Source: Nanobdellati archaeon
GTDB lineage: Archaea > EX4484-52 > GLR71
Assembly: GCA_019429005.1 (NCBI GenBank)
Contig: JAHYJR010000007.1
Location: 1-53,762 of the forward strand
Length of the DNA: 53,762 nt
Reading direction: 5' to 3'
Shown: in pieces, positions 1,626 to 21,463 of the stretch
Layout: each line of letters opens with the position of its first letter
How positions within the stretch are numbered: position 1 is the stretch's first letter
Notes under the pieces: model-generated
Told to the model about the DNA's origin: nothing
Seen by the model: only the letters and a program-made list of their open reading frames with translations
Databases searched by the model: none
Position numbers and translations under genes: made by a program

Positions 1626-1725
1626 GTGGTTGGGTGGATAGAAAAAAATTTCAAGGAAATGTTCCAAATATCTCACTTAAGAGATTAAAGATTTATGCTT
1701 TTCAGTCCACCTAATCCAGGGGTTC
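1626..1725. other. Structured element E1 with shared CTGGATTAGG motif
   Basis: An unusually G+C-rich outer stem pairs 1628-1638 (GGTTGGGTGGA) with 1706-1717 (TCCACCTAATCC, one bulged T). Inside are two small hairpins, GGAA/TTCC (1655-1665) and ATCTC/GAGAT (about 1670-1685). The 5' end GTGGTT(G/A)GG and the 3' end CACCTAATCCAGGG recur in element E2 (21393-21463). The strand cannot be decided. It may be a small RNA or a control region of the mre11-like gene. The rest of 1371-1735 is A+T-rich leader sequence. Confidence 0.5.
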
Positions 1726-1735
1726 TAAACAATTT

Positions 1736-2293
1736 TTAATTTTTCTTATTACTTTTTTTAATTTTAACTTTTTTCTTTTGATATTCTGTAAAAAAATCAA
1801 TCTCTGAATTTAACGATTTTATAAGATCTGGATTATCATTATTATCAGATATAGCCTGTTTAAGATAATCTAAAGTATATTTAAGATTTAAACCGCCATT
1901 ATGTACTTTTAATGCGTTTTTCTTAATTTCTTTAAGTTTCCTTGCAAGTTCCATCTTATGCATCTTATTTTGTTTATTTTCACTCCGTTCAATAGTATAA
2001 TCTTTTATACCTTGTTTAAATGCCGATTTGGCACCAAGAAAGAAAAAATGCGATGCAATATTTACTTTTTTAATCTTATCAATATTTTCTTTAACTTTAT
2101 ATACACTCCAAATAGGAAAAAAGAAAGAATCCTGAATATTTCTTGCCATAATGCTTAACTGTGTCTGTTTTTTAAGGACTTTATCTTTCTTACGAGATTC
2201 TTTCAAAAATAAGACTTCTTTTTCATTTTTATTAACTGTATCAGTCTCAGATGTATTATCTTTAATATCTTCATTAGTATCATCATTAACCAT
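1736..2293 (-). CDS. Lys-rich hypothetical protein
   Basis: About 185 aa, not recognised. The N-terminal 45 residues are acidic/polar and probably disordered. Residues 50-90 are more hydrophobic and aromatic (FFFPIW, HFFFLG) and could be a membrane-associated or buried segment. The remainder is predicted helical and Lys-rich, ending in a basic tail. The ATG at 2293 is preferred; an in-frame TTG at 2302 would add three residues. It stands alone, divergent from proS, with element E1 just beyond its stop codon. Probably lineage-restricted. Confidence 0.6.
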   Translation of the reverse strand: MVNDDTNEDIKDNTSETDTVNKNEKEVLFLKESRKKDKVLKKQTQLSIMARNIQDSFFFPIWSVYKVKENIDKIKKVNIASHFFFLGAKSAFKQGIKDYTIERSENKQNKMHKMELARKLKEIKKNALKVHNGGLNLKYTLDYLKQAISDNNDNPDLIKSLNSEIDFFTEYQKKKVKIKKSNKKN

Positions 2294-2437
2294 AAAAATC
2301 AAACCATATAGATATTTAGTACATTAAATATATTTATATCCTATATTAATATAAAAATAAAACAAAATAAATCATATCAATCATATAAAGATTAAAATAT
2401 AAATATCAACACACAAAACTGAGATAAGGTGTAATAT

Positions 2438-3895
2438 ATGACACAGAATGCAAACGACCTAGGGATTACAATTAAAAAAGAAGATAACTTTAGCGAATGG
2501 TATCTTGAAGTAGTTAGAAAAGGTAAATTCAAAGATCAAAGAACACCTATTAAAGGTCTAGATGTATTTATGCCATGGGGTTATGCATTATGGGAAAAAA
2601 TACAAGAAAACATCAATTTAAGTCTCAAAAAAATGGATGTTAAAAATATGTATTTTCCGCTATTAATACCTGAAAGTCTCTTAAAAAAAGAAGAAGAACA
2701 TTTTAAAGGATTTACAGTTGAGGCTGCAACCGTAACAGAAGTTGGAAAAACAAAATTAAATGAAAAACTTATAATAAGACCAACATCAGAAACAATAATG
2801 TATCATATGTTTTCACAGTGGATCAGAAGTTACAGGGATTTACCTCTTAAAATCAACCAATGGTGCAATGTAATTAGATGGGAAACAAAAGCAACAAAAC
2901 CATTTATAAGAGACAGAGAATTCTTATGGCAAGAAGGTCATACGGCACATGAAACAAGAGAAGACGCAGTAGAGCAAGTTAATAATTCGGTTGAAATGTA
3001 TTCAAAACTTTATGAAATGCTTGCACTTTCAGCACTTGAACTTCAACGTACACCCGCAGATACTTTTGCAGGTGCTGATTATACAGTTGCTTTAGATACA
3101 CTTGTAGACGACGGAAAAGTATTCCAAGGTCCAGGTACCCACCTTCTTGGACAAAATTTTTCAAAACCATTTGATGTCAAATTTGAAAACAAAAATGAAA
3201 AAACCGAATATGTATGGCAAACAAGTTGGGGTGTATCAACAAGACAAATCGGTGGAATACTTATGCAACATGGCGACAATAAAGGTGCTGTACTACCACC
3301 ACAGATTGCACCAATACAAGTTGTAATTACACCTATAATATTCAAAAATAAAAAAGAACCAGTCATAAAAGCTTCAGAAAAACTTCTAAAACAGCTTGAA
3401 AAAATAGGAATACGCACAGAAATTGATCAACGAGAAGAATATTCTTCAGGGTTCAAATTCAATGAATGGGAACTAAAAGGTGTACCTATACGAATTGAGA
3501 TTGGTCCAAGAGATGTTGAAAACTCGCAAACAATTGCTGTACGTCGAGATACTGGAGAAAAAATAACAATAAAAGAAAATGATAGCAAACACATCGAAAA
3601 AATACTTGATGACATACAAAATGCTCTTAAAACTAAAGCAAAAAACGATCTTTACGACAAAATATTTAATACAAAAGACAAAGCTGAATTTGATAAAATA
3701 ATAAAATCAAAGAAAGGTGGTTTTATAAGAGCAAATTGGTGCGGTAATCCTGTTTGTGAAAAAAAGGTCAAAGAAGATACAAATGGTGTTGAAATCAGAG
3801 GTACATTATATAACAAAAAAGAAAAAGTGTTTGGTACCTGCCTATATTGCAATAAAGAGGCAAAAGAAGTAGTATATCTTGCAAAAGCATACTAA
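2438..3895 (+). CDS. proS: Prolyl-tRNA synthetase, archaeal/eukaryotic type
   Basis: Class II synthetase of 485 aa that charges tRNA-Pro in the cytoplasm. Residues 15-60 match the start of the archaeal/eukaryote-like ProRS catalytic core (NFSEWYLEVVRKGKF). Motif 2 is in RWETKATKPFIRDREFLWQEGHTAH, and the prolyl-adenylate site segment GPGTHLLGQNFSKPFDV and motif 3 (GGILMQHGD) are present. The anticodon-binding domain follows, then a C-terminal zinc-type domain with C-x4-C and C-x2-C pairs (about 434-470). The protein ends in tyrosine, a hallmark of this ProRS type. The length is normal and no editing insert is seen. The ATG at 2438 follows AAGGTGTAATAT, a good ribosome-binding box. Monocistronic by appearance. 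Confidence 0.97.
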   Translation: MTQNANDLGITIKKEDNFSEWYLEVVRKGKFKDQRTPIKGLDVFMPWGYALWEKIQENINLSLKKMDVKNMYFPLLIPESLLKKEEEHFKGFTVEAATVTEVGKTKLNEKLIIRPTSETIMYHMFSQWIRSYRDLPLKINQWCNVIRWETKATKPFIRDREFLWQEGHTAHETREDAVEQVNNSVEMYSKLYEMLALSALELQRTPADTFAGADYTVALDTLVDDGKVFQGPGTHLLGQNFSKPFDVKFENKNEKTEYVWQTSWGVSTRQIGGILMQHGDNKGAVLPPQIAPIQVVITPIIFKNKKEPVIKASEKLLKQLEKIGIRTEIDQREEYSSGFKFNEWELKGVPIRIEIGPRDVENSQTIAVRRDTGEKITIKENDSKHIEKILDDIQNALKTKAKNDLYDKIFNTKDKAEFDKIIKSKKGGFIRANWCGNPVCEKKVKEDTNGVEIRGTLYNKKEKVFGTCLYCNKEAKEVVYLAKAY

Positions 3896-3901
3896 AAGGA
3901 A

Positions 3902-4381
3902 TTATCTATTACGGCGATCCCATAGTTCATGTGCTAAGATATTTGAAAATGTCCCACCAAGAAAGGCAAGAGTCACTTGATTTACACTGCCACCATCAAT
4001 ATGGATATTACTAACATAATTATAAACTGGTTTTAAAATATTAGTATAGATAGACTCAAAACAAATGTCTTTATACTCATTTACTCCGTATAAAAACATT
4101 TCACAATTTCCAATAAAAGGCTCCAAAATATCATTATCAACACCATCAAACAAATATGACGCAAATGATATGTCTGACATATCAAAATCACTTTGTTTTA
4201 CAAAAACACCCAATGCAAGAATACCAACACCAAAAGCAACTTTATTATAAGATTTATATGATTTTTTAGAACGCAATTTTAAACAATCATAATTAAAATC
4301 AGGATTTCCAAAAATATTATCTTTATAACCCATCCAACCACAAAAATAATTTATCAAACAAGTCTTTATGATATTTAGCAA
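3902..4381 (-). CDS. Hypothetical protein with one hydrophobic helix
   Basis: Up to 159 aa, not recognised. A hydrophobic helix (VAFGVGILALGVFV, near residue 50) could be a membrane anchor. The rest is acidic and aromatic and ends in a basic tail (WDRRNR). The start is uncertain: a TTG at 4381 has a G-rich stretch directly abutting it, and an ATG at 4333 (MGYKDN) gives 143 aa. It is convergent with proS, the stop codons being only 6 bp apart. Reality as a gene is likely from length and composition, but no family was recognised. Confidence 0.5.
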   Translation of the reverse strand: MLNIIKTCLINYFCGWMGYKDNIFGNPDFNYDCLKLRSKKSYKSYNKVAFGVGILALGVFVKQSDFDMSDISFASYLFDGVDNDILEPFIGNCEMFLYGVNEYKDICFESIYTNILKPVYNYVSNIHIDGGSVNQVTLAFLGGTFSNILAHELWDRRNR

Positions 4382-4570
4382 CCACTTACGATAGTGACTA
4401 ACTGATTTTTTACTAATATCACACTATAACATTATGTTTAATAGATTGATATAATATGCATAAGTCAATCACAAGAATACTTATAAAGACCACAAAATAT
4501 ATAAATAAATAGTCATTTTTCCGAAACATTTATAAAGCTTTTTTTAAATATTAGATAAACTGACATATAA

Positions 4571-4587
4571 GACCAAAATATTTAAAA
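4571..4587 (+). promoter_or_regulatory. Likely TFB gene promoter (BRE/TATA)
   Basis: GACCAAA followed by ATATTTAAAA (4578-4587) has the form of an archaeal BRE/TATA box. It predicts a start site near 4610 and a leader of about 40 nt before the ATG at 4651. A second candidate, TTTATAAA at 4529-4536, lies further upstream. The region 4382-4650 holds no gene. Confidence 0.5.
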
Positions 4588-4650
4588 AGATATCTGTTAG
4601 TTTAATTTATTACTATTAAATAATACATAATTAATTTTAAGGTGCTCATT

Positions 4651-5613
4651 ATGGAAATAGAAAATACTAAATGTCCCGAATGTGGATTTAATAATTTTGA
4701 AAGAGACGAATCAAAAGGTGAACTCATTTGTATGAAATGCGGTGCAATCGTAAATATAGATATGGTTGACACTAGCCCTGAATGGAGAGCATTTGATGTC
4801 GAACAGAAATCAAAAAGAACACGAACTGGAGCACCAATGACCTTTACAAAACACGATAAGGGTTTTTCAACAGAAATCGGAAGCAGTACAGCAGAATTAT
4901 ATAAGGTTCCTGTTAAAAAAAGAGCACAATATTATAGGCTTAGAAAATGGCACAAAAGACTTACAAAATCAAAAGATAGAAACTTGAGTTATTCTTTCTC
5001 TGAACTTGTAAGACAGATTTCATATTTAAATCTAAGTTCAAGCGTTCATGAAGAAGTCGCAAGACTCTATGAAAAAGCAGTAACAAAAGGTCTTGTGAGA
5101 GGACGTTCAATGGAAAGCATAATCACAGCATTGATATATGCAATTGCTAGAGAACATGGAAGTCCAAGAACTCTTTCAGAACTTTCTGCAGCATCCGGTA
5201 TTGAAAAAAGAGAAATCGGAAGAGCTTACAGATACATTGCAAGAGAACTTAAGATTAGAATATTACCTGCAACAGCAAAAGAATACATACCAAGATTTTC
5301 AAGTCTTTTAGGTCTTTCAGGCGAAGTTCAAGCAAGATCTAAAGAAATACTTGACAAAGCAGCAGACGAAGATATCATCTCTGGAAAAGGTCCAACAGGT
5401 ATTGCAGCTTCAGCATTATATATAGCTGCAGTTCTAGGTGGCGAGAAAAGAACACAGAGAGATATAGCAGATGTTGTCGGTGTAACTGAAGTTACTATTC
5501 GGAACAGGTATAAAGATCTTGTCGAAAAATTAGGAATCGAAGAAGAAGTCGAGAAGAAAGCAGCTGAGACTGAAAAACGTCAGAACAAAAGGGTTGAAGA
5601 TAAAATTCTTTAA
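4651..5613 (+). CDS. tfb: Transcription initiation factor TFB
   Basis: This 320-aa protein recruits archaeal RNA polymerase to TBP-bound promoters. The N-terminal zinc ribbon has Cys pairs at 8/11 and 27/30. It is followed by the conserved B-reader/B-linker segment (SPEWRAFD) and two cyclin-like repeats (about 120-210 and 215-310). The second repeat carries the BRE-contacting helix-turn-helix (TQRDIADVVGVTEVTIRNRY). The ATG at 4651 is chosen because GGTGC sits 5 nt upstream. The last 15 residues are highly charged. No second TFB is in the window. Assignment is secure. Confidence 0.97.
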   Translation: MEIENTKCPECGFNNFERDESKGELICMKCGAIVNIDMVDTSPEWRAFDVEQKSKRTRTGAPMTFTKHDKGFSTEIGSSTAELYKVPVKKRAQYYRLRKWHKRLTKSKDRNLSYSFSELVRQISYLNLSSSVHEEVARLYEKAVTKGLVRGRSMESIITALIYAIAREHGSPRTLSELSAASGIEKREIGRAYRYIARELKIRILPATAKEYIPRFSSLLGLSGEVQARSKEILDKAADEDIISGKGPTGIAASALYIAAVLGGEKRTQRDIADVVGVTEVTIRNRYKDLVEKLGIEEEVEKKAAETEKRQNKRVEDKIL

Positions 5614-5639
5614 TCACTTTTTTTATTTTTCTTTAATCT

Positions 5640-5722
5640 ATTTTTTTATTTTTTTTATAATAAAATTTTAGATTTTTTTTATTTTTTTTATAATAAAATT
5701 TTAGATTTTTTTTATTTTTTAA
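5640..5722 (+). terminator. T-rich termination region with a 33-bp duplication
   Basis: Beginning about 25 nt after the TFB stop codon are long oligo-T runs, the usual archaeal termination signal. A 33-bp unit containing ATAATAAAATTTTAG starts at 5657 and is repeated at 5690. The rest of 5614-6006 holds no supported gene apart from the promoter at 5931-5942. Confidence 0.55.
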
Positions 5723-5930
5723 TAATCACTTTTTATTTTAAGCATTTTAATTCTATTTTAGACAATATTTAACATTTTTATTTGATCATATATCATATTC
5801 TCAAAAAAAAGGACATTTAATTTCAAATACAAGCGTTTTAAGACCTTTAAATTAGATATTTTAAACTTCTTTTTAATACCAAACCTATATTATTTAATTT
5901 ATTTGTTACTATTATATACTAAATTATAGA

Positions 5931-5942
5931 AAACTTTATAAA
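5931..5942 (+). promoter_or_regulatory. TATA box for the small gene at 6007
   Basis: AAACTTTATAAA preceded by purine-rich AGA is a good archaeal BRE/TATA match and predicts initiation near 5965, about 40 nt before the ATG at 6007. Confidence 0.5.
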
Positions 5943-6006
5943 CAGAAGAAGTTAATATAATTTTACTAACTAAGAGTAACAATTAAATATGATTTATGGT
6001 GATTTT

Positions 6007-6204
6007 ATGGAAGTTGATCAGGTAAAAACAATGATGCGTTTGGCTAAAGAATCGGGTAACTTAAGAGATCTTGAGAGACTTGAAAAGATTATGAAATTTC
6101 AAACACCTAATTTCAGGTATCCTGAAAAAAGAAGAAGATCTCTATTTGGAAATAATTTCTGGGAAACAGCAATTAAAAACAACAGAATTACACCAAGAGA
6201 TTAA
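6007..6204 (+). CDS. Small basic hypothetical protein (65 aa)
   Basis: Not recognised. An N-terminal helix (MEVDQVKTMMRLAKESG) is followed by a charged helix and a basic C-terminal half with an RRRS cluster and aromatic residues. The ATG at 6007 has GGTGA 4 nt upstream and so is preferred over an in-frame ATG at 5989. A TATA box lies at 5931-5942. It precedes another tiny gene (6304) that has its own ribosome-binding box, so both are probably expressed. DNA or RNA binding is only a guess from charge. Confidence 0.65.
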   Translation: MEVDQVKTMMRLAKESGNLRDLERLEKIMKFQTPNFRYPEKRRRSLFGNNFWETAIKNNRITPRD

Positions 6205-6303
6205 ACAAAAACAGATAGAAACAACACAAAATTAGATTACTACAATAATTTTTTAAAAAAATAGTAATCACAACATAAAAAAATATACATAAACGGTGTG
6301 AAA

Positions 6304-6435
6304 ATGACAAAATTATTTGAACTAATTAAAAAAAATATTGACGAACTAAATAATAAATCTGAAACAGATATGGCAAAACATATTATGTCTAAAGTAAATA
6401 AACAAATTATCAAAAAGATTGCAACAACAGCTTAA
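6304..6435 (+). CDS. Small hypothetical protein (43 aa)
   Basis: A 43-codon reading frame starts at an ATG with GGTGT 4 nt upstream, the standard ribosome-binding spacing in this window. The peptide is Lys/Asn/Ile-rich and predicted helical, with no cysteines or membrane segment. Its stop codon is 3 nt from the convergent trm1 end. No family recognised; the strong ribosome-binding site is the main support. Confidence 0.5.
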   Translation: MTKLFELIKKNIDELNNKSETDMAKHIMSKVNKQIIKKIATTA

Positions 6436-6438
6436 TTA

Positions 6439-7614
6439 TTATTTTTTATCTTGAATCGATAAAATAAGCTCAGTTACATCTGCATCAGTTCTAATTCCAG
6501 TCGGTGTAAAATGAGTTTTTGATACAGAAAAACCTAGAGATTTTAGTTTTTCAATAATTATATCCATCTTAGGTATACTAAGACTATTTTTCTTACAAAA
6601 ATCATGCAAATCATAAAATAAATAATTAATCTTTGATTCTTCCATTACAAGATTAAGAAATTTATACATTTTAACAACATTCTTATCTTCACTCAATTCA
6701 GAATCAAAATTATCAAGAACAGACTTTAAAAAAGGGGAATCTGACATAGATCCAATCCATAAAGGTCCACCCGTCTGAATTGTTTTAGAGCATTTAGGGC
6801 ACGTAATTAAAGACTTGTCACTAGATAAAAACGTTCTAAACCCACAATGTGTGCAGTACGCAACATACCCTATATTTTTAAGTGAATTATCTGTTTTAGT
6901 CTTACCTTTTGTTGCAATTGCAAATATTCTAAAATAATGTTGATCTGAAAAACTCAATACTGGCATAAAAGCCTTATCATATCTTGAAACTGCAAAAGCT
7001 ACCTGACCCATAAGAATCCTAAGGCCAACTTCATGCATAATATCATGATGTAATGGCCTTGCACCATATTTTCTAAAACAAGCTTTGGGATAAGTACCAG
7101 AAAGTGGTGCAGTATCAGTTGCAGTAACAGCAATCATTGAATATCTACTTAAAGCCCTTGCAGCAGAATCCAAAAATATATTAGGCGAACCAAAAGGATC
7201 AATATCAACAAAATCAATTGAATCTTTATATCCTGATAAAAATTCATTTGCATCTAATAGAGAAAATTCAAGAGAATCAACATCATTTAAGATAGCATTC
7301 TCTTTTGCAAGATCTAATGCGGTTGGATTAAGATCATTAAGATAAACAACATCGCAACCAGATTCTTTCCTATATCGTATACCTCTAACACCTGATGCAC
7401 AAAAGACATCTGCAGCAAAAAAAGGATGTACTTTATCTTTTGTTTCTAATAACTTATTTTTTTGAGCTGAAAACTCATTCAATACAATAACAGATATATC
7501 CCTATTTAACCTCATCAAAGGGTTATAAAATACAGAATCCGACTTCTTGATATCTCCAGAATATATTCTAAATGAACATTTGCCTTCAATAATTTTTTGA
7601 GATTTATCTGCCAT
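6439..7614 (-). CDS. trm1: tRNA (guanine(26)-N2)-dimethyltransferase Trm1
   Basis: About 391 aa. Makes m2,2G at position 26 of tRNAs using SAM. The N-terminal part matches Trm1 (SVFYNPLMRLNRDISV). The SAM-binding Rossmann fold shows FCASGVRGIRYRKESG and YLNDLNPTALDLAKEN, and the catalytic motif is DIDPFGSP. The segment TATDTAPLSGTYPKAC is diagnostic. A zinc-binding insert has two C-x2-C pairs (CTHCGF and CPKC). The ATG at 7614 is preferred; ATG 7623 and TTG 7635 are in-frame alternatives. Convergent with a small + strand gene. Confidence 0.95.
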   Translation of the reverse strand: MADKSQKIIEGKCSFRIYSGDIKKSDSVFYNPLMRLNRDISVIVLNEFSAQKNKLLETKDKVHPFFAADVFCASGVRGIRYRKESGCDVVYLNDLNPTALDLAKENAILNDVDSLEFSLLDANEFLSGYKDSIDFVDIDPFGSPNIFLDSAARALSRYSMIAVTATDTAPLSGTYPKACFRKYGARPLHHDIMHEVGLRILMGQVAFAVSRYDKAFMPVLSFSDQHYFRIFAIATKGKTKTDNSLKNIGYVAYCTHCGFRTFLSSDKSLITCPKCSKTIQTGGPLWIGSMSDSPFLKSVLDNFDSELSEDKNVVKMYKFLNLVMEESKINYLFYDLHDFCKKNSLSIPKMDIIIEKLKSLGFSVSKTHFTPTGIRTDADVTELILSIQDKK

Positions 7615-7675
7615 AAGAATCATAATAGAAATCAAATATAAAAATCTTAGTAAAAATTAAAAAAAATCACTTATT

Positions 7676-9310
7676 TTAGTGATCAATTAATTTTTTCTCT
7701 TCATAACTCTCTTTAGCAAGATCATCACGAACTCTCTCAAGAACAATATCATCCTCAGGTGGTTTTTTATTATCTTTTATCTTATCACCTTTTAAAGTCG
7801 CTTTAACAACATCATCTTTAATTATAGAATTTTTAACAGACTTGTCACCTTTAGGCTCTTTAAGTTCACCTGCATCTTTAAGTTCCTTAAGTTTCTTTCC
7901 AAGCACAAATATGAAACGTTTTGTATCTTCCTTAATCTCATAAATTTCACGCTCAGGAACCATCTCGGCTTGACCTTTCTTTGCAACAACCATAGCTTTT
8001 GCAATCTTTTCAAAAACAAATTCATGTTGTTCTTTAAGATCTGGGAATGTACTTGCCATCACTTTTGGAAGATCTTTAAGTTTCTCAGGTGGTTTTATAC
8101 CTTTAAGTTCAAGAGCACCAACATTTGCTCTCAAAAAAGTCTTATAAGTATCAAGCAGAATACTTGATTTTTTCTTTTGTTCAAGAACTTTCAAAAGCTC
8201 AACCATACGCTTAACAAACTGATCACAAATCTCTATATGTTCATCAACCTTAACACCAAGCCCTTTCAAATTTGCTTCATCATCATCATGTTCCATCTCT
8301 TTTGCAAATTTATGGATTTTATCTGCATAATCAACATATTTCTGCTCAAGAAGTTTCTGTTCAACAAAATAATGTTTTAATTGTTTTGATGTCGCTTCTT
8401 TTCCAGCTGGAATCTTTCCAATAAACATCAAAGGTGCCTGACCTGCTGCAGCCATTGCCTGTTCAAGGTAATGTGCGGCAGATTTCACTCTATATTGAGC
8501 CATCTTAAGATGTTGTGGTGCTATATGAATTCTTTTTGATACAGCTTCCATAGTGGTTGGAAGTTTACCTCGCTGAAGCATCCTTTTTGCAGGCATAAAT
8601 ACACCCACATCAAACACAGGAATACCATTCCGTAATACAACCATAACAAGGGGTTCTACACTCCGTATAGACTCCCAGAATTCAGTTAAAAACATAAATG
8701 CTTGTATTGTAATATTTTTATCAATTTTAGCTGCAATCTTTCTAAGATCAGCCCAAATACGATCTTTTACTTCTGCAGGAATATCATTTTCTAACTTTGT
8801 ATCATCAATAATAACAAAAGTGTCTATATCACTTGTCTCCTTATGATCCCCTCGTGCAGTAGAACCATAAACAACAACAGCTTTCAATGATTTCTTAAAC
8901 TCTTTTGCAAGTTCCTTAGCATATTTCTGTGCAATTTCAAACCTAAGCCTTTGACTTTCCTCTGTTGTTAATATTTTCTTATTTGTATCATCTTTTGTAT
9001 CTGATTTTACATCATCTTTTGTATCTGATTTTACATCATCTTTTGTATCTGATTTTACATCATCTTTTGTATCTGATTTTACATCATCTTTTGTATCTGA
9101 TTTTACATCATCTTTTATATCTGATTTTACATCATCTTTTGTATCTGATTTTACATCATCTTTTATATCTGATTTTACATCATCTTTTGTATCTGATTTT
9201 ACATCATCTTTTATATCTGATTTTACATCCTCTTTAGATACATCATCCGAAACAGAACTCTCTTTTTTATTATCTTTAACAACTGCTTTGGAATGGTCTT
9301 TTTCAGTCAT
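7676..9310 (-). CDS. Nucleotidyltransferase-domain protein with 8-aa acidic repeats
   Basis: A 544-aa protein in three parts. Residues about 25-110 contain roughly ten tandem copies of DDVKSD(T/I)K, a highly charged and certainly disordered linker. Next comes a minimal nucleotidyltransferase fold (VVVYGSTARGDHKETSDIDTF): the GS...D-x-D pattern of the pol-beta superfamily, with both metal-binding Asp present. The C-terminal half is helical and Lys-rich. The ATG at 9310 is chosen because GTGA sits 5 nt upstream; an in-frame ATT at 9319 is not needed. The substrate is unknown. Such proteins can be tRNA- or protein-modifying enzymes or MNT-type antitoxins, but no toxin partner is adjacent. Confidence 0.75.
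   Translation of the reverse strand: MTEKDHSKAVVKDNKKESSVSDDVSKEDVKSDIKDDVKSDTKDDVKSDIKDDVKSDTKDDVKSDIKDDVKSDTKDDVKSDTKDDVKSDTKDDVKSDTKDDVKSDTKDDTNKKILTTEESQRLRFEIAQKYAKELAKEFKKSLKAVVVYGSTARGDHKETSDIDTFVIIDDTKLENDIPAEVKDRIWADLRKIAAKIDKNITIQAFMFLTEFWESIRSVEPLVMVVLRNGIPVFDVGVFMPAKRMLQRGKLPTTMEAVSKRIHIAPQHLKMAQYRVKSAAHYLEQAMAAAGQAPLMFIGKIPAGKEATSKQLKHYFVEQKLLEQKYVDYADKIHKFAKEMEHDDDEANLKGLGVKVDEHIEICDQFVKRMVELLKVLEQKKKSSILLDTYKTFLRANVGALELKGIKPPEKLKDLPKVMASTFPDLKEQHEFVFEKIAKAMVVAKKGQAEMVPEREIYEIKEDTKRFIFVLGKKLKELKDAGELKEPKGDKSVKNSIIKDDVVKATLKGDKIKDNKKPPEDDIVLERVRDDLAKESYEEKKLIDH
8990..9231 (-). repeat. 24-bp coding tandem repeat
   Basis: About ten 24-bp units encode DDVKSD(T/I)K in the nucleotidyltransferase-like protein. 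Units are nearly identical at DNA level, the Thr/Ile alternation being one base, so the array is recent and likely variable in copy number without breaking the frame. Confidence 0.95.
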
Positions 9311-9364
9311 AGGAATCACTTAGATATTTATTAAATTTGAACGTTATATATAATTAACGATTTA

Positions 9365-13365: not shown

Positions 13366-13405
<40 letters not shown>

Positions 13406-13466
13406 TAGGTCTTGCTTTTATATATTTAGACTTAGCTATATAAATATTTGTCACTAATATACAAAT

Positions 13467-13802
13467 ATGTTGGTAGAATTAATAGCTGCATTATTTATTA
13501 CAATCGGCATAGTTTTCATATATATAATGTCAACAAAAAAAGATGAAAATACAACTAAATTCATGACAATGTTCTTTCTTTCAATTGTGTTAACATACAC
13601 AGGAATCACTCTTTTTGGTATCACTTGGGAAATATTTATAACAAAAATAAAAGCACTTATTCTAATCCTAATAGGTGTATTTTTCGCATACAATTTCCAA
13701 GGAAATGTTAGTGATGAATACCAATATGAAGGATTTGCTATGATAGGTATGATAACAGGCATTATTTTATTGATTCTCGGATTATATTGGTTAATATTTT
13801 AA
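13467..13802 (+). CDS. Small integral membrane protein (111 aa)
   Basis: Four hydrophobic segments: 3-20, 33-50, 60-77 and 92-110, joined by short charged loops (STKKDENT; NVSDEYQYEG). No motif, signal-peptide cleavage site or conserved cysteine was recognised. The ATG at 13467 has a TATA-like CTATATAAATA about 25-30 bp upstream (near 13436-13446), so the mRNA may be leaderless or nearly so. Function unknown. Confidence 0.65.
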   Translation: MLVELIAALFITIGIVFIYIMSTKKDENTTKFMTMFFLSIVLTYTGITLFGITWEIFITKIKALILILIGVFFAYNFQGNVSDEYQYEGFAMIGMITGIILLILGLYWLIF

Positions 13803-13871
13803 CAATTTTATTTAAATTATTTTTAAAAAACTACATTTTGTAACCCATCCAAACGGTAATATTAAGTGTAA

Positions 13872-13882
13872 TATTAATATAC
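13872..13882 (+). promoter_or_regulatory. TATA box giving a probable leaderless mRNA
   Basis: TATTAATATAC is centred about 27 bp before the ATG at 13905, the distance expected for transcription starting at or next to the start codon. No ribosome-binding box precedes that ATG, in agreement. Confidence 0.4.
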
Positions 13883-13904
13883 AAGTAAACAAATATATTA
13901 TATA

Positions 13905-15611
13905 ATGAAAGAAGCAATTGATTTACATAGTATAGGATCAGAATGGATGAATAAAGCTTGGCCTAGGGCAAAATTTACCTGTTTTGAAGGTGATGAAGGT
14001 ATGCAAACCGAATTATCATATTCGGGGTCTTTAGGCTCAGTAGAAACTCTATGGGTCGGTAGTCTTTTTGGATTATCAGGCAAAGATTTCACAATAATCA
14101 ATTTACACCGTTCCTTTAATGTTACTCCAGCACAAGATAACCCCTATTACCAATCCACACTAGCCCAAAAAGACGCACTTCAAAAACAAATAAGAGAGAC
14201 TTTAGGCGGTATTGGAGCTAATGTAAATGATCTTGAACTTGTTAAAAATGATATAAGAAAATTAAAAGAATTCAAAAGTTATTTTAAAAAGGCTGAAGAG
14301 GGTAATGATTTACCATTAAAGACTATGTTTATAACGGAAGTTGATTTCTATGCAGGTGGTCAAGCTAATATTCAAGGTCAAACAGGCAGACTCAGCATAG
14401 AATTTCAAAGGATAAATAATTTTATGCCGACAGTTGTTGAAGATTTTAATGAAATAAAACCTAAAAAATATTTTGAAAACATCAAAGAAGATTATTTAGA
14501 TAAAGAAAACAGATTCAAAAACATTTCAACAGTTGAAAAAAACTTTCTTGCAGCAAAATGGGAATCATACCAAGAATGGATCAAAATGTTAAAAACTAGG
14601 ATAAATAATGACTATAAATTAATGAAAATACAAGAAAAAAGTAGAAAAAGCACAATAAATATGATGCGAGAAGATATTAAACCACTCATTGCAAGATACA
14701 AAATTAAAAAAGATTCTTTAAGTGATCCAGAAAATCGAAAAAATCTGCTTACAAACTGGACAGATACAGAAAAAAGAATAAATTCAAGCGAAAATATAGA
14801 AGTTTTCGCAATAAAAACAATGGACTCAACAGAATTCCATAAAGCACCTTCAGAAATGGTTGTAAAGGCAGATGTAAAAGCAAATGATAAATGGACACAA
14901 GAAGTTTTGTTATACGGAAAAAAAGATAAAAATGGAGTCCTTACACAACCAGGTTACCTTAAAAAAACATACCCTTGGATTGATGAAAAATGGATCAATG
15001 ACAAAATCAAAAATATTAGTGATTTATCCGGAATTAATCCAGAAAAATCAATGTACTGGACAGTATATAAAATCAGCTATAAAAGATCAAATTTGACACT
15101 ATTAGGAACACCAAGCGAAGATGGTGACTTTTCATTTAAAACATTCATGTTAAGCAAAAACATGCTTCTTGCAAAACTTCTTGACATTGAAGCAAATAAA
15201 GAAAACTTTGAATATGAAATAGATGAAATTGTCGGAACCAGCACAAGACAAGAAGGTACAATAAAATATAAAATTCAAAAAAAAGATAATTCTACTAAAT
15301 ATATAGTATCCGAACAAACAATTGAAACTACGGGCGAAGATATCTATGCCGGAACATACACATCTGAAGAAAACATGAAAGATGAATACGGTAGTGAATA
15401 TGATTACATAGAAACAAAACAAGAAAAGACAAAAAAGAAACTAGAACTATTAAAATATTTTAACATACCCTTTTTCTTTACTAGGCCGACAGGTCCTTAT
15501 GAATCACGTTTCAAAGACAGAATTACCAAAATGTATCTAGGTGTCGTTGGAAAACGATTTTCAGTAGAAGTTGTTGGAACATTCAAAGGCAATATGAAAA
15601 TTGGTGGCTAA
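13905..15611 (+). CDS. Large hypothetical protein (568 aa)
   Basis: Not recognised. The N-terminal 175 residues look like a mixed alpha/beta domain with Gly-rich turns (SYSGSLGSVETLWVGSLFG; FYAGGQANIQGQTGRLSIEF). Residues 180-290 are charged, Lys-rich and probably helical or coiled. The rest alternates charged helices and strands, and the last 70 residues return to strand-rich sequence (KMYLGVVGKRFSVEVVGTFKG). The terminal strand segments resemble the one at 160-175, suggesting a domain split by a long insertion. No membrane segment or obvious active site. Confidence 0.65.
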   Translation: MKEAIDLHSIGSEWMNKAWPRAKFTCFEGDEGMQTELSYSGSLGSVETLWVGSLFGLSGKDFTIINLHRSFNVTPAQDNPYYQSTLAQKDALQKQIRETLGGIGANVNDLELVKNDIRKLKEFKSYFKKAEEGNDLPLKTMFITEVDFYAGGQANIQGQTGRLSIEFQRINNFMPTVVEDFNEIKPKKYFENIKEDYLDKENRFKNISTVEKNFLAAKWESYQEWIKMLKTRINNDYKLMKIQEKSRKSTINMMREDIKPLIARYKIKKDSLSDPENRKNLLTNWTDTEKRINSSENIEVFAIKTMDSTEFHKAPSEMVVKADVKANDKWTQEVLLYGKKDKNGVLTQPGYLKKTYPWIDEKWINDKIKNISDLSGINPEKSMYWTVYKISYKRSNLTLLGTPSEDGDFSFKTFMLSKNMLLAKLLDIEANKENFEYEIDEIVGTSTRQEGTIKYKIQKKDNSTKYIVSEQTIETTGEDIYAGTYTSEENMKDEYGSEYDYIETKQEKTKKKLELLKYFNIPFFFTRPTGPYESRFKDRITKMYLGVVGKRFSVEVVGTFKGNMKIGG

Positions 15612-15638
15612 AACCAATTTAAAAAACAATCATAAAAA

Positions 15639-16457
15639 TTATTTTATATCATATAAAAATTTCTGAAGATACACTTCACAAAGACCTTGATAAGGTCCCC
15701 ATGATTTTTTTGCAAAATATCTTAGATTTTTATCATTATCAAAATCAATTTTATAATCATCTCTAACAATCTTTCTTATAAGAGAATCCGTATAAAAAAA
15801 ATCAAATTTGCGCATCTGAAACAAACAAAATATATCTATAGAATAGGGACCTAAACCTTTAATTCTTGAAAGTCTAGAAATATCATCAATTTTAGGATTA
15901 AATAACATGAACTTTGCAACATTCAATATGTAATCAGAACGATATCCAACACCACACTCTGAAAGATGTTCTGGCTTTAGAAGAATATCTTTAGGTTCTG
16001 GAAACGCACCAAATCCATATACATTAATCAGATTCAAAACCATCTTCTTATACTGTAGAAAAGACACATTTTGTGAACATATAATTGACACTAATGCTTC
16101 AAAATCTGTATACGCACTCAAAAGCCTATTACCACATATTGCACCCATATACTTTTTAAGAATTTTATCAGATTCGCATGTGACATAAAACCCTGAAAGA
16201 TCCTCACCACAACCTAGACAATATGATACCCTTTTTGAGATGATATCAGAAACATTCGAAGTTACACCCTTTTCATAAGACAAAATCAAATCATTGTCAA
16301 CCTGACTAAATTTAATCTTAATAGAATTTGAACCGACCTTAATTACTTTTTCAGGAAGATTACCCGTAAAAAAAAAGAAAGGTTTATATTTCAAAATCAA
16401 ATCTAAATTAAAATCTTTCTGAAGCGCTATAGATACACTACTGACAAGATTAGCCAT
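15639..16457 (-). CDS. HhH-GPD DNA glycosylase (AlkA/OGG-like)
   Basis: 272 aa base-excision repair enzyme. The N-terminal ~95 residues resemble the AlkA/OGG1 beta domain. The catalytic HhH-GPD fold begins near residue 100 (FEALVSIICSQNVSF), the helix-hairpin-helix is IKGLGPYSID, and the catalytic Asp follows in FFYTDSLIRK. The hairpin position occupied by Lys in OGG1 is not Lys here, which points to a monofunctional AlkA-like glycosylase for alkylated or deaminated bases. The ATG at 16457 lacks a strong ribosome-binding box. Motif CTGGATTAGG lies 79 bp upstream, above a TATA-like stretch, as it does for the mre11-like and recJ genes. Family good, substrate uncertain. Confidence 0.85.
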   Translation of the reverse strand: MANLVSSVSIALQKDFNLDLILKYKPFFFFTGNLPEKVIKVGSNSIKIKFSQVDNDLILSYEKGVTSNVSDIISKRVSYCLGCGEDLSGFYVTCESDKILKKYMGAICGNRLLSAYTDFEALVSIICSQNVSFLQYKKMVLNLINVYGFGAFPEPKDILLKPEHLSECGVGYRSDYILNVAKFMLFNPKIDDISRLSRIKGLGPYSIDIFCLFQMRKFDFFYTDSLIRKIVRDDYKIDFDNDKNLRYFAKKSWGPYQGLCEVYLQKFLYDIK

Positions 16458-16512
16458 GCCTATAATTCCATAACAAGATATAAATAGATAGTTTATATAA
16501 ATTATATAAAAC

Positions 16513-16545
16513 GGATTATTACACTCTTAAATTATCCTAATCCAG
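16513..16545 (-). promoter_or_regulatory. Element E3: CTGGATTAGG motif upstream of the glycosylase gene
   Basis: On the minus strand CTGGATTAGG (16536-16545) is followed by a matching TAATCC (16513-16518), so GGATTA/TAATCC form a 6-bp dyad with a 19-nt loop. It lies upstream of TATA-like sequence (about 16490-16510) of the glycosylase gene, where an archaeal activator site would sit. The same 10-mer is in E1 and E2. Confidence 0.5.
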
Positions 16546-16571
16546 TATTCTAAAATCAAAGGTGAATTAAT

Positions 16572-17789
16572 ATTAATAAAAATAAACAAATTATTGCAAT
16601 CTTATTATTACTAATAACATTCATCACTATAACACCAACTGTATTTACAGAAGAACAACTTTCATGCGAAGACACATCTGAAGGGACTTGTGAACTTGAA
16701 CAACCAAATATAACACAAATAACACAATACAGTAACTTAAATACACATGATAATTGTGCAGAAAACATAACAAATATACATTTTTTCTATGGTACTGGAT
16801 GCCCTCATTGCGCTAATGTTGAACCTTTAATAGATGAAATGGATGAAAAATATAAAAATGAAATAATCATACACCGTCAAGAAATCTATCATGATAACGA
16901 AAATTACAAATTATTTGAAAAAACAAAAGAAAAATTTGATCTGAAAAATGCAGGCATACCACTTATTGTAATAGGAAACACTTATCTTATGGGCGATAAA
17001 TCAATAATTAAAGAGTTAGAAAATGAAATTATCAGATGCGAAACAAAAGACTGTGAATGCCAATTAAGTTGTGATGACACATTACCTGAAGACATATCAC
17101 CAGCACAAATTAAACCAAAATCAATAACATTACCAGTAATAATCATATCAGGACTAATTGATGGAATCAATCCCTGCGCATTTGCAGTAATAATCATACT
17201 TCTGACATACTTAAAAGGCATTGGCAACAAAAAGAAAATGTTTGTAGTTGGTATGACCTACATCTTTGCTGTATATGTTACTTATTTCGTTGCAGGCCTT
17301 GGACTTCTTTCAACATTCCAATTCGCAGGAATAACAAGATCAATCTTTGACATATCTGCAATACTTGTGATTATATTTGGACTTATAAACCTAAAAGATT
17401 TCTTCTGGTATGGTAAAGGTATAAGTCTCGAAATACCAAAACAATACAAAGGAACGATTCATAAATATATCTTAAAAGCCACAATACCTGCCGCATTAAT
17501 ACTTGGTGTTCTAGTCTCTATGTTTGAACTCCCATGCACAGGTGGCGTTTACCTTGCAATCCTAGGCCTTCTATCAAACTCAATGACACAATTAAGTGCA
17601 ATACCATATCTGCTCCTATACAATTTTGCATTTATATTGCCTTTGATAATCATAATGATTGTTATGTATAAAGGTTACGACCCTAAAAAAATTGAAGATG
17701 CAAGAAAAAAAGAGAGAAAATGGATGCGATTAATGATGGGTCTTCTCATGGTCGCGCTTGGAGTTGCTATGCTAACCGGTCTGATATAG
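16572..17789 (+). CDS. Thioredoxin-like/CcdA-like fusion membrane protein
   Basis: About 405 aa, a disulfide-exchange membrane protein. The N-terminus is a membrane segment or signal anchor (about 6-25). A thioredoxin/glutaredoxin-like domain follows with active site CPHC (77-80) in FFYGTGCPHC. A Cys-rich linker (about 156-167) has four more Cys. The C-terminal six-helix CcdA/DsbD-type domain has redox Cys in INPCAF and ELPCTGG. It should carry electrons across the membrane to an outward thioredoxin domain. The frame is open to 16566. GGTGA (16561-16565) points to ATT at 16572 as initiator; the first ATG (16839) would remove the membrane anchor and active site, so it cannot be the functional start. 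Confidence 0.82.
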   Translation: MNKNKQIIAILLLLITFITITPTVFTEEQLSCEDTSEGTCELEQPNITQITQYSNLNTHDNCAENITNIHFFYGTGCPHCANVEPLIDEMDEKYKNEIIIHRQEIYHDNENYKLFEKTKEKFDLKNAGIPLIVIGNTYLMGDKSIIKELENEIIRCETKDCECQLSCDDTLPEDISPAQIKPKSITLPVIIISGLIDGINPCAFAVIIILLTYLKGIGNKKKMFVVGMTYIFAVYVTYFVAGLGLLSTFQFAGITRSIFDISAILVIIFGLINLKDFFWYGKGISLEIPKQYKGTIHKYILKATIPAALILGVLVSMFELPCTGGVYLAILGLLSNSMTQLSAIPYLLLYNFAFILPLIIIMIVMYKGYDPKKIEDARKKERKWMRLMMGLLMVALGVAMLTGLI

Positions 17790-17814
17790 ACACAACAACC
17801 AACCCATCCACTCT

Positions 17815-17834
17815 CTTAAGATAAATTATCTAAG
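17815..17834. terminator. Hairpin between convergent genes
   Basis: CTTA-A-GATAA-A-TTATC-TAAG forms a 9-bp stem with one bulge in the 40-bp gap between the convergent thioredoxin-CcdA gene and the gene ending at 17830. It could serve transcripts from either side. No long T run follows on either strand. Confidence 0.35.
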
Positions 17835-18438
17835 GTAAATTATTTAACAGATATGATGCAACAGTCATAGTATCATAATAAACATCACTTTTAGGCTCAA
17901 TCCTTTCAGCAAAATCTAAAGGTGATGTTTGCGTATTCAACATAAGCATACCAAGATAATTGTCTTGACGAAATCTTTTATTTTGCCATTCGTATGATTC
18001 TTTAAGAACGTCGTGATAAGTCTTAATCAACCCTATTGGAACATCTACACAAAATGTCTCAAGAACAATCATATCTTGAAGCATTTCATACACATCCGGA
18101 ACATCCTCCATAATATCTTCAGGACTAGATATACCATATATCAAATCAAGCTTTTCCTTCAGATTATATTGCATAGGATCTGATTGAACAAAACTTTCAA
18201 ATTGAGGATCAATAAGATACATAACAAAATTCAAAGTATCATCTATTATTTTCTTTCCGATTTCAACAGATTTACTTTCAATATAATCATTTCTTATTGA
18301 TACTAATGCACTTGAACGATCTTGAGGACTAAGACAATTCAATGCAGAATTACCAAAAGCCAATGATTTACTATATACATCAACCTCAATTGGTTGTTCA
18401 AGCCACAACTGTTTTGCATCTTCAATTTGATTTTTCAT
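17830..18438 (-). CDS. Acidic hypothetical protein, second of a coupled pair
   Basis: 202 aa, predicted almost all alpha-helical and acidic, with Trp/Tyr/Met-rich segments and no membrane helix or catalytic motif. Its ATG directly abuts the TGA of the upstream gene, and the GGTGA ribosome-binding box lies inside that gene's last codons, so translation is coupled. The two products probably act together. Family not recognised. Confidence 0.65.
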   Translation of the reverse strand: MKNQIEDAKQLWLEQPIEVDVYSKSLAFGNSALNCLSPQDRSSALVSIRNDYIESKSVEIGKKIIDDTLNFVMYLIDPQFESFVQSDPMQYNLKEKLDLIYGISSPEDIMEDVPDVYEMLQDMIVLETFCVDVPIGLIKTYHDVLKESYEWQNKRFRQDNYLGMLMLNTQTSPLDFAERIEPKSDVYYDTMTVASYLLNNLP

Positions 18439-19167
18439 TCAATTCACCTCATTAACTAACATACTAGCCCCATACGTACCTGGTGGTGACCTATAGGAAA
18501 ACATAATATCATCTGGTATAACTATCTTAGGCTCAGTTATATCAAAAACCATAACATCACCATCTCTTGTACTTTTCACAAAAGGTCCATAATTTTTAAG
18601 TCTACGTTCTTCAACCCTTTGCCTAAGTAAATCTCTAATTTCCATCGGATCATCATAAATCCACAAAGGTTCATCAAAATCTTCAACAACACAAGATATT
18701 CTTTGAACTTCTGACAAATTCAAATCAGATATAAATTCACAACCTTTCGCAAGCCTTAAACTAATATCATCATATATGGACAAATGAAGTCTTTCAAATT
18801 TAGCATCATATCGAGGACAGTTAATATTGCCACTATATTCAATTAATTGCGAAAGCTCATCAACAAGATTCGTATCAATACCGCATTCATAGTCTTTATA
18901 CGCTTTTAATACCGTTGGCTCACATTCAAGCAAATACGAAGCATGTATAACCATATCATTTCTTAAAGGATGATAATTTTCTAATAACATTGAACCAATC
19001 AAATAAAGAGTATCTTGATATTCATCAGTCTTAAATCTAGGCTGATATATCCAACCCTTATCTTCCACAAGACACATAAGCCTACGAAATTCATCGAAGT
19101 AAATATACTGTCTATCTGATTCATTTAATTCCAAAGTCTCTATCAAAAGACTACTTTCACTTAACAT
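18439..19167 (-). CDS. Acidic hypothetical protein, first of a coupled pair
   Basis: 242 aa, not recognised. The N-terminal two-thirds are helical and acidic with scattered Cys (positions near 32, 80, 94, 117, 142 and 158) that do not form a regular zinc motif. The C-terminal third is Pro/Gly-rich with a repeated basic stretch (RQRVEERRLKNYG). ATG at 19167 follows GGGGTGTTAAGG, a strong ribosome-binding region. Coupled to the next gene by zero spacing. Base composition is like its neighbours. Confidence 0.6.
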   Translation of the reverse strand: MLSESSLLIETLELNESDRQYIYFDEFRRLMCLVEDKGWIYQPRFKTDEYQDTLYLIGSMLLENYHPLRNDMVIHASYLLECEPTVLKAYKDYECGIDTNLVDELSQLIEYSGNINCPRYDAKFERLHLSIYDDISLRLAKGCEFISDLNLSEVQRISCVVEDFDEPLWIYDDPMEIRDLLRQRVEERRLKNYGPFVKSTRDGDVMVFDITEPKIVIPDDIMFSYRSPPGTYGASMLVNEVN

Positions 19168-19462
19168 CCCTTAACACCCCCTAATTATTTTTTAAAACAT
19201 ATCCAACAGATTTTTAGCTAACGCTAATTGATTGAACCAACATAAATGATAGCTTAAACAAAACAAAAAAATAAAAAACGGCTATCAAAAATCTAAGATA
19301 GACTTAGATAATATACATAAAATTTAAACAAAAAAAGAGGTCATCAATATATACCATATTGGCATATTATTAGCGAATCATCCCAATTTATTGCTCAAGG
19401 CACATAAATCCCTTAAGTTTATAAGTAGATGTTTTACAAATAGAATTGACTTTATAGGTTAA

Positions 19463-19504
19463 ACTATGCACTGCGAGATTCAATTTTGCAGTTAATAACA
19501 TAGG
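19463..19504. other. Two-tier hairpin in a 476-bp gene-free stretch
   Basis: CTATG-c-ACTGC, a 13-nt loop, GCAGT, six nt, CATAG form nested stems; a third dyad CTAAAT/ATTTAG follows at about 19517-19531. The region 19168-19643 contains no convincing reading frame on either strand. A small RNA or a control region is possible. A TATA-like AAGTTTATAAG lies near 19415-19428. Weak support. Confidence 0.3.
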
Positions 19505-19612
19505 TAACATAATAATCTAAATATTATTTAGATATTTAAGTATATATATGTTACTATTTGGGTAAAAATAACAAAATAATTACATAAATTAACAAATACC
19601 ACTATAATATTT

Positions 19613-19645
19613 CAAAAAAAATTAAAAAAAGGTCCTTTTAGACCT
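19613..19645 (-). terminator. Intrinsic-type terminator of the recJ-like gene
   Basis: On the minus strand AGGTC, a 6-nt loop and GACCT form a 5-bp stem overlapping the stop codon, followed immediately by T7, AA and T8. This has the form of a factor-independent terminator. Confidence 0.6.
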
Positions 19646-21290
19646 ACATCTTCTTTATCTCTTCAATTATCTTTGAAAAAACTTCATCTTTTGCACCTTC
19701 AACAAACTTTATTGAACCTGCAGCATGATGACCACCACCAGATATTGAACCATACGGCATCTCACGCACTAACTTAACAATTAAATCATTAACATTAAAC
19801 CCACGTTCAACAGCAGGGTCTGATATACGCATAGTCACAAAAAACGGACCAAGGCCAATAGTCACAACCATCCTACCTATATATTTATCTTTAAGGGAAT
19901 CATGTGCCATACCTGTCGCCATGCCCGGTGCTGGGAACTCGCCTCTATGAGTCGTAAGACTTGTATCTAATATACCAACAATTACCTTATTATCAAATTC
20001 TTCAACAGACAGGTATTCATCATTCACTAAGTTCTGGTTCTTAAGCGCAAGTCCGATTTCATCATTCAAAAGAGTAACAAGAACACGCTGTTTTTTCAAA
20101 TCAACACCAAGAAGATCATCAACAAGTTTCCAACCTTCAGAAAATCTAAGATAATGTGCTTCAAAATCAACAGCTAATGCAATCTGTTTCAAATAATCTA
20201 AATCAAACCCCATCTCTTTTGCAATAGACATATACTTATCAAAATCATCACCTTTAGCTCGATCTGCTACACCAGCTAAAGCAGGGAAAAAATCAAGATT
20301 GGATACATTTTCATTAAGTAACCTTGCAAGTTCTACACAAAGCATACCTGCTGTAAGATTATTATCACCACCAAACAGATATGGATTCATATGAGCATCC
20401 AAAAATTCATCAACTTTTGATTTGCCATCAATGACTTCACCAGGATAATGATGATCTACAACAATAACCTTTGCATTATAAATTTTTGCTTTACGTATAG
20501 CCAAAATATCTTCTTCAGTAGAACCATTATCTACAAGGATTATCAAAGGTTCAATCTGACCAAAACGTTCCATATCTTTAAGTGCCATAGAAATATCTCT
20601 TAAAACATCAGAATATTCATAGAACGGTGCTTTTGATGGCGAACGTGAAAAATAACGCCATTTTGAATCCTTACTGCCATATTGTGCTTCAATCAAAGGT
20701 ATAATAGCACGCTGAAGAGCAATACCACCACAATACCCATCAGTATCCGCATGATGCCTTACAATAATAGGCCTACCTTCAATGATTGCTCTTTTTATCA
20801 AAGATGCAACCTCAATAAATCGCTGTTTCATTTTATCAAGCATAGGACTTTCAATCAAAAAATCTGAAGATTTAGGTTCAGATAATTTTTTTATATTTTC
20901 TTCAATCTGATTCGAAACCTCAATCTCTTTGGGTGGTAATAATTTACGAATTATAGTTATTTCATTTTTCTTACGCCCATTTTGATTCTTAATAGACAAT
21001 AAGATACTTACAATATCCTCAGAATTAATTTCCGGATTTGCTCTAACACCAGCACCATTAAAAGCTGTAACTTCAATAGAACCTGTACCATCATTAATCA
21101 TAAATACTGTCGGTCCTGAAGTCTGTTGTACTGATATAACTTTACCTTCAATTTGATATATACCTAAACTCTGTTCTAACACAAATTTAATTGTCTTTTT
21201 TTGAATTTTAGATTCACTTGAATTATCATTATTATTATTATCATTAGGAGAACTATTTTCAGAACTCTTTTTAATTATTATTTTATTCAT
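19644..21290 (-). CDS. RecJ-like DHH exonuclease (GAN type) with OB fold
   Basis: 548 aa. A low-complexity Asn/Ser-rich head (1-30) precedes an OB-fold (about 45-110, IEGKVISVQQTSGPTVFMIN). The DHH phosphoesterase core has motif I HHADTDGYCGG, motif II VDNGS, and the name motif VVDHH (near 275). The DHHA1 domain ends in GGGHHAAGSIKF. This matches archaeal RecJ-like single-strand nucleases, including GAN, which in other archaea binds the GINS complex at the replication fork. A GINS subunit gene is in this window (33868-34524). The ATG at 21290 has AGTGATTTT upstream. Element E2 lies about 105 bp upstream. Confidence 0.9.
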   Translation of the reverse strand: MNKIIIKKSSENSSPNDNNNNDNSSESKIQKKTIKFVLEQSLGIYQIEGKVISVQQTSGPTVFMINDGTGSIEVTAFNGAGVRANPEINSEDIVSILLSIKNQNGRKKNEITIIRKLLPPKEIEVSNQIEENIKKLSEPKSSDFLIESPMLDKMKQRFIEVASLIKRAIIEGRPIIVRHHADTDGYCGGIALQRAIIPLIEAQYGSKDSKWRYFSRSPSKAPFYEYSDVLRDISMALKDMERFGQIEPLIILVDNGSTEEDILAIRKAKIYNAKVIVVDHHYPGEVIDGKSKVDEFLDAHMNPYLFGGDNNLTAGMLCVELARLLNENVSNLDFFPALAGVADRAKGDDFDKYMSIAKEMGFDLDYLKQIALAVDFEAHYLRFSEGWKLVDDLLGVDLKKQRVLVTLLNDEIGLALKNQNLVNDEYLSVEEFDNKVIVGILDTSLTTHRGEFPAPGMATGMAHDSLKDKYIGRMVVTIGLGPFFVTMRISDPAVERGFNVNDLIVKLVREMPYGSISGGGHHAAGSIKFVEGAKDEVFSKIIEEIKKM

Positions 21291-21392
21291 AAAATCACTT
21301 TAATATTAATTATTTATACATATATTATAAAAAAACCTTTAGATATCCACTGTTTATAAGTCAATTAAAAAAAATGCAAAGAATATAAATTA

Positions 21393-21463
21393 GTGGTTAG
21401 GCGTATAAAAATTAATCAAAAAACTTACGTCAAATGATTGTTTAACGCCCACCTAATCCAGGG
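21393..21463. other. Structured element E2 with shared CTGGATTAGG motif
   Basis: GGTTAGG (21395-21401) pairs with CCTAATCC (21452-21459, one bulged T). Inside, AATCA/TGATT can pair. The ends GTGGTTAGG and CACCTAATCCAGGG match element E1. It lies about 105 bp upstream of the recJ-like start and 75 bp beyond the stop of the small Cys-rich gene. It may be a small RNA or a regulatory site. Confidence 0.5.

What the first reader, a model, noticed from the sequence alone, without database searches (positions are those of the whole stretch)
1626..21463. Shared CTGGATTAGG motif upstream of three DNA-repair genes
The 10-mer CTGGATTAGG occurs on the minus strand at 1710-1719, 16536-16545 and 21452-21461. 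Each copy is upstream, in the right orientation, of a minus-strand DNA-repair gene: mre11-like (start 1370), HhH glycosylase (16457) and recJ-like (21290). A 5-G/C 10-mer is not expected even once in 54 kb of such A+T-rich DNA. In E1 and E2 the identity extends to 14 nt at the motif and 8-9 nt at the partner arm, and all three can form GGATTA-type stems. This could be an archaeal DNA-damage regulon operator or a family of small structured RNAs.
Basis: partly seen in the sequence, partly recalled or inferred. Interest (0 to 1): 0.8.

Follow-up and report, generated by a model that had tools for sequence, protein, structure and literature searches.

The report
Lineage-specific family of hairpin RNAs
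Two of the three reported motif copies belong to a previously undescribed family of small hairpin-forming elements, most likely RNA genes, scattered through the genomes of one group of tiny archaea; the apparent link to DNA-repair genes does not hold, and the third copy is a chance match.

Summary
Only two, at 1710-1719 and 21452-21461, belong to a larger element: a hairpin whose foot is CCTGGATTAGGTG on one side and CACCYAACCAC on the other, with a variable stretch between. A covariance model trained only on relatives recovers both (60.7 and 37.0 bits) and rejects the copy near the HhH glycosylase (4.8 bits, no partner arm). The genome has five strong copies; seven of eight other genomes of the family, and one of another family in the same order, have two or three each. 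None of 385 other archaeal genomes has it, and no Rfam family matches. The stem above the invariant foot differs between copies yet stays complementary (0 of 20,000 re-pairings as good), so pairing is under selection. The copy beside mre11 keeps its place across two genera. Other copies lie beside MC1, proteasome, V-ATPase, glmS and RNase P genes, in mixed orientations, and mre11 has its own conserved TATA box downstream, so a repair regulon is not supported. Best reading: a lineage-specific family of small structured RNAs, partner unknown, transcribed strand unresolved.

The parts
1622..1723 (.). Hairpin element, copy 1 (mre11 locus); transcribed strand unresolved. Read on the minus strand it is ACCCCTGGATTAGGTGGA...TATCCACCCAACCACAGTA
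   Evidence: R3, a model built from relatives only: 60.7 bits, E 1.3e-12; R1 78.1 bits; same neighbours in relatives
1706..1719 (-).
   Evidence: sequence; pairs with 1627-1638 in the minimum-free-energy fold
1627..1638 (-). Other arm of copy 1 (TCCACCCAACCA)
   Evidence: fold; re-pairing test of the inner stem
21389..21465 (.). Hairpin element, copy 2 (recJ locus); transcribed strand unresolved
   Evidence: R3: 37.0 bits, E 6.5e-7; R1 79.2 bits
21450..21461 (-). One arm of copy 2 (CTGGATTAGGTG; A21457 bulged)
   Evidence: sequence and fold with the foot helix enforced
21394..21403 (-). Other arm of copy 2 (CGCCTAACCA)
   Evidence: sequence and fold with the foot helix enforced
16536..16545 (-). 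Third 10-mer copy near the HhH glycosylase: chance match, not part of the family
   Evidence: no partner arm; 4.8 bits with filters off; fold no better than shuffles, z +1.08
141..1370 (-). mre11-like gene; the contig ends before any rad50
   Evidence: Pfam Metallophos 4.3e-12; about 47-51% identical homologues in 6 relatives
1736..2302 (-). 188-aa conserved protein of unknown function, neighbour of copy 1
   Evidence: 38-41% identical to the corresponding gene at the mre11 locus of relatives; no Pfam family
19644..21290 (-). recJ-like DHH gene
   Evidence: Pfam DHH 2.6e-8, OB-fold 9.9e-8; no homologue found in 8 other family genomes

Best explanation
The two real copies are members of a family of small structured non-coding RNAs, about 50-100 nt, confined to one family of Nanohaloarchaea-like archaea and a near neighbour. 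Each has an invariant closing helix, UGG[A]UU(A)GGU paired with ACC(C)AACCA, with a bulged nucleotide and one weak or wobble pair. Above it is a copy-specific stem that stays complementary. Most long copies then have a short inner hairpin of the GGAA...UUCC kind. Shown: the family, its copies, its pairing, its conservation and its dispersed positions. Inferred: it acts as RNA. Inferred with less support: the invariant helix is the docking site of an RNA-binding protein not yet identified, and the variable upper part gives each paralogue its own job in trans.
For: Covariance-model hits in own genome and relatives; a relatives-only model recovers both window copies; re-pairing test, 0 of 20,000 permutations reach the observed inner-stem energy, about 6 sd; conserved synteny at the mre11 locus across two genera; intergenic positions independent of neighbour gene or orientation; no Rfam match on either strand.
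Against: No transcript evidence. No TATA box at a fixed distance on either strand. Strand signals conflict. Covariation inside the invariant foot itself is weak because it hardly varies. A hairpin acting as DNA is not excluded. No partner protein found.
Confidence: 0.66

Rival explanations
1. Cis-acting RNA leader or attenuator in the untranslated region of the neighbouring gene, for example a protein-binding or ligand-binding switch.
For: Some copies sit 80-450 nt before a gene on one strand or the other: glmS (96 nt), MC1 (about 80 nt), recJ (99 nt), mre11 (250-450 nt). One widely used protein could in principle control unrelated genes.
Against: In neither orientation do all copies precede a same-strand gene; neighbours share no pathway. 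mre11 has its own TATA box between element and start codon, kept in G004, which lacks the element.
Confidence: 0.15
2. DNA-level hairpin or inverted-repeat site: a cruciform, or a recombination or protein-binding site such as an attC-like site.
For: The hairpin folds about equally well on both strands, and no promoter is at a fixed distance. attC sites are also hairpins with conserved feet, and integrons occur in archaea (PMC9668308).
Against: Arm order is the reverse of attC (my knowledge: RYYYAAC...GTTRRRY). Copies are single, not in clusters, and stay in the same place between genera. The two arms differ in a constant way (bulge, A.C), unlike a symmetric DNA site.
Confidence: 0.1
3. DNA-damage operator or regulon of repair genes.
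For: Copies near mre11 and recJ in the window; type A lies on the herA side of MC1 in relatives.
Against: The HhH copy is chance. Three of five strong copies in the genome are not near repair genes. Type B is near proteasome and stomatin-like genes in relatives. mre11 occurs without the element in G004. recJ has no homologue in the other family genomes.
Confidence: 0.03
4. Dispersed non-coding mobile or repeat element (MITE-like).
For: Several copies per genome with inverted ends; absent from the mre11 locus of G004.
Against: Interiors unrelated in sequence and length; orthologous positions kept across genera; inner-stem pairing selected; no hits in viral contigs.
Confidence: 0.05

Closest known systems
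Candidate structured RNA motifs found by comparative genomics (e.g. Weinberg et al. 2010, PMC2864571)
   Same: Intergenic, conserved foot, covarying stems, found by covariance models, function unknown, strand sometimes uncertain (that paper discusses G-U pairs and GNRA loops for the L17 downstream element)
   Different: This family has no match in Rfam 15 and is confined to one small archaeal lineage
Y RNAs (Ro60-bound)
   Same: Few paralogues per genome, invariant closing helix with a bulged base, variable upper part (recalled resemblance)
   Different: No TROVE/Ro60 protein in any of the 34 genomes of the phylum held; sequence unrelated
Archaeal H/ACA and C/D guide RNAs
   Same: Small hairpin-bearing archaeal RNAs in several copies
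   Different: No box C on either strand of 20 elements, no ACA at a fixed place, no kink-turn seen by eye, 49-nt members leave no room for a guide pocket
Integron attC sites
   Same: Imperfect hairpin with conserved feet and variable top
   Different: Arm order reversed, no arrays, conserved chromosomal positions

Membership tests
Any Rfam 15 family | Covariance-model match over the element | tested here: not met
   gathering search of the window and E-value search (up to 5) of nine element loci: no match overlaps an element
H/ACA guide RNA | ACA box directly 3' of the hairpin, 14-16 nt from the target site (PMC7991803) | tested here: not met
   ACA loosely present after 9 of 20 elements on one strand and 3 of 20 on the other, at no fixed place
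H/ACA guide RNA | K-turn or K-loop 5-6 nt above the pocket | tested here: inconclusive
   no tandem G.A motif seen in folds by eye; no formal K-turn search
C/D guide RNA | box C RUGAUGA and box D CUGA | tested here: not met
   box C in 0 of 20 elements on either strand; CUGA in 4 and 1
Y RNA | Ro60/TROVE protein in the same genome | tested here: not met
   PF05731 in 0 of 34 genomes; control genome Deinobacterium positive
Integron attC | clusters of sites less than 4 kb apart and 5' RYYYAAC ... GTTRRRY 3' order | tested here: not met
   single copies, about 19.7 kb apart in the window; arms in the opposite order on both strands (sequence; attC order from my knowledge); the clustering criterion is from PMC9668308
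DNA-damage regulon operator | site upstream of several repair genes in conserved promoters | tested here: not met
Riboswitch or leader | consistent position before genes of one pathway | tested here: not met
   mixed orientation and unrelated neighbours
Small structured non-coding RNA | pairing kept by compensatory change | tested here: met
   own arms pair better than any of 20,000 re-pairings
Small structured non-coding RNA | discrete transcript | not testable with these tools
   no RNA data available

The most novel reading that the evidence does not exclude
A lineage-specific ribonucleoprotein system: a dedicated RNA-binding protein of these archaea docks on the invariant bulged helix of two to six paralogous RNAs, each with its own upper domain and task, comparable in logic to Y RNAs or 6S-like RNAs but unrelated to any of them.
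Probability: 0.25. Interest if true: 0.65.

Novelty: new member of a known kind. Interest (0 to 1): 0.45.

Why it matters
Very little is known about non-coding RNA in these small-genome, uncultivated archaea. A family that keeps a near-invariant foot at the same locus while the neighbouring proteins have drifted to 40-50% identity is under strong selection and so has a job. It gives a defined probe (consensus, coordinates, model) for RNA-seq and for pulling down a partner protein. It also removes a false lead: there is no sign here of an archaeal repair regulon.

Tried and rejected
(1) Repair-gene operator: rejected on neighbours, orientation and the mre11 promoter. (2) Known RNA families: Rfam in two modes, nothing over the elements. 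(3) Y RNA: TROVE absent. (4) C/D and H/ACA guides: boxes absent. (5) Antisense to rRNA: complements of the conserved arms are not in the rRNA operon region; the 16S hit is a sense match. (6) Small peptide: type B has ATGCGAAAG... after an AGGTG sequence, but no start codon is kept there in type A or in the G002 copy of type C (my reading of the sequences). (7) attC site: arm order reversed, single copies. (9) The bacterial pattern hits of the genome scan score only 12-22 bits, chance level. (10) Viral contigs: no hits. (13) Two literature searches for this RNA in DPANN archaea gave nothing relevant.

Full report
OBSERVATION. CTGGATTAGG occurs on the minus strand at 1710-1719, 16536-16545 and 21452-21461; 0.07 copies are expected by chance in the window and none of 100 shuffles reaches three. 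The whole genome, 1.08 Mb in 15 contigs, has nine copies against two for the reversed control pattern. Reading the nine in context splits them. Five (C7 copies at 1710 and 21452; C10:47980; C11:44113; C13:46943) continue as CCTGGATTAGGT and are followed downstream by a partner arm of the form YYYAAYCAC. One (C11:124261) has a degraded partner, one reads as coding sequence, one is in 16S rRNA, and the copy near the HhH glycosylase (16536) has no partner.

FAMILY. A covariance model from the five copies (R1) finds exactly those five strongly in the genome. It also finds two or three copies in each of seven of the eight other genomes of the same family and two in one genome of another family of the same order (G011); all 34 genomes of the phylum held were searched. 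Among 394 archaeal genomes only these nine have a match at E up to 1e-4. A pattern scan of 84,980 named genomes gives ten hits in records titled Candidatus Nanohaloarchaea archaeon (CSMAG_1717, CSMAG_1348, GLR72), archaeon GLR71, DPANN group archaeon KA24 and Candidatus Aenigmatarchaeota RS_11_38, plus five single bacterial hits. The bacterial hits score 12-22 bits and look like chance. A third model, built only from relatives (R3), recovers window copy 1 at 60.7 bits (E 1.3e-12) and copy 2 at 37.0 bits (E 6.5e-7). It also finds the C11 and C10 copies (60.2 and 40.6 bits) and, weakly, C11:124219 (22.7 bits), but not the C13 copy. The HhH copy scores 4.8 bits with filters off and folds no better than shuffles (z +1.08).

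STRUCTURE. Pairing each 5' inner segment with its own 3' partner gives -172.8 kcal/mol over 15 elements; 20,000 re-pairings average -117.3 (sd 8.6) and the best reaches -156.2. A less redundant set of 11 gives the same result, 0 of 20,000. This is the main evidence that pairing, not only sequence, is selected. The foot itself hardly varies, so its own covariation is weak. Most long copies carry an inner hairpin of the kind GGAA-loop-UUCC. The shortest members (type B, about 49 nt) end in a GCGAAAGC-like loop.

TYPES AND POSITIONS. In relatives the copies sort into types by locus: A between the HerA-helicase side and the MC1 chromatin-protein gene; B next to a stomatin-like (Band_7) gene, with the proteasome alpha gene on the other side in G003 and G008; C upstream of mre11. 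In the window's genome the other copies lie inside the V-ATPase gene cluster, beside glmS and a winged-helix gene, and between the RNase P genes (rpp30, pop5) and the FttA gene. Neighbours share no pathway, and in neither orientation do all copies precede a same-strand gene.

MRE11 LOCUS. Window copy 1 is the orthologue of type C by position. It lies between a 188-aa conserved protein (38-41% identity to the corresponding gene in G005, G006, G007) and mre11 (about 47-51% identity). G002 has it too, and G008 holds its last part at a contig end. In G005 two other genes separate the 188-aa orthologue from the element, which stays with mre11. In G004 the 188-aa orthologue runs straight into mre11 with no element. 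In all six relatives a conserved CTTTTAAAT box stands just before the mre11 start codon, some 250-300 nt downstream of the element where the element is present. mre11 therefore appears to have a promoter that does not include the element, and one relative does without the element. The recJ-like gene beside copy 2 has no detectable homologue in the other family genomes, so that association is private to this genome.

STRAND. This is unresolved. If the opposite strand is right, both window RNAs are transcribed away from mre11 and recJ.

FUNCTION. I propose small RNAs acting in trans, with the invariant bulged helix as a protein-docking site; the protein is unidentified and this step is inference. 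The rivals (cis leader, DNA hairpin, mobile repeat, repair operator) are scored in their own section.

CLASS. No Rfam 15 family matches. It is not a C/D or H/ACA guide by the tested boxes (defining features from PMC7991803), not a Y RNA by the absence of TROVE, and not an attC site by arm order and lack of arrays (archaeal integrons: PMC9668308). It belongs to the broad kind of candidate structured RNAs (PMC2864571), as a new family.

Noticed in passing
   Followed up: partly
Type A loci L042, L044, L022, L032, L052, L054, about 30-110 nt past the element: An unexplained block of about 75 nt, nearly invariant in six genomes, bounded by two TATA-like boxes.
   Followed up: no
G002, G005, G006, G007, G008 between element and mre11 (L111, L115, L114, L113, L116): A further conserved TATA-like box (TATAAAYCTRACYCA) and flanking sequence, lost together with the element in G004; possibly another small transcript.
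   Followed up: no
L059:1501-1586 and L061:1501-1579: Candidate divergent member (type F), CCCTGGATTTGGTGGGGGGAAA..., weak score but conserved in G003 and G005.
   Followed up: partly
G000:C11:124219-124274 (L016): Weak sixth copy with degraded partner arm (22.7 bits with R3).
   Followed up: partly
window 1-140: 14-nt tandem repeat TAAACTATCAAACT at the contig end, directly after mre11.
   Followed up: no
window 8934-9293: 12/24-nt tandem repeats inside the 547-aa minus-strand ORF 7676-9319.
   Followed up: no
window 26561-26761: 67-nt direct repeat, two identical copies and a third partial one.
   Followed up: no
window 19644-21290: The recJ-like protein (DHH plus OB-fold) has no homologue detected in the eight other family genomes.
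   Followed up: partly
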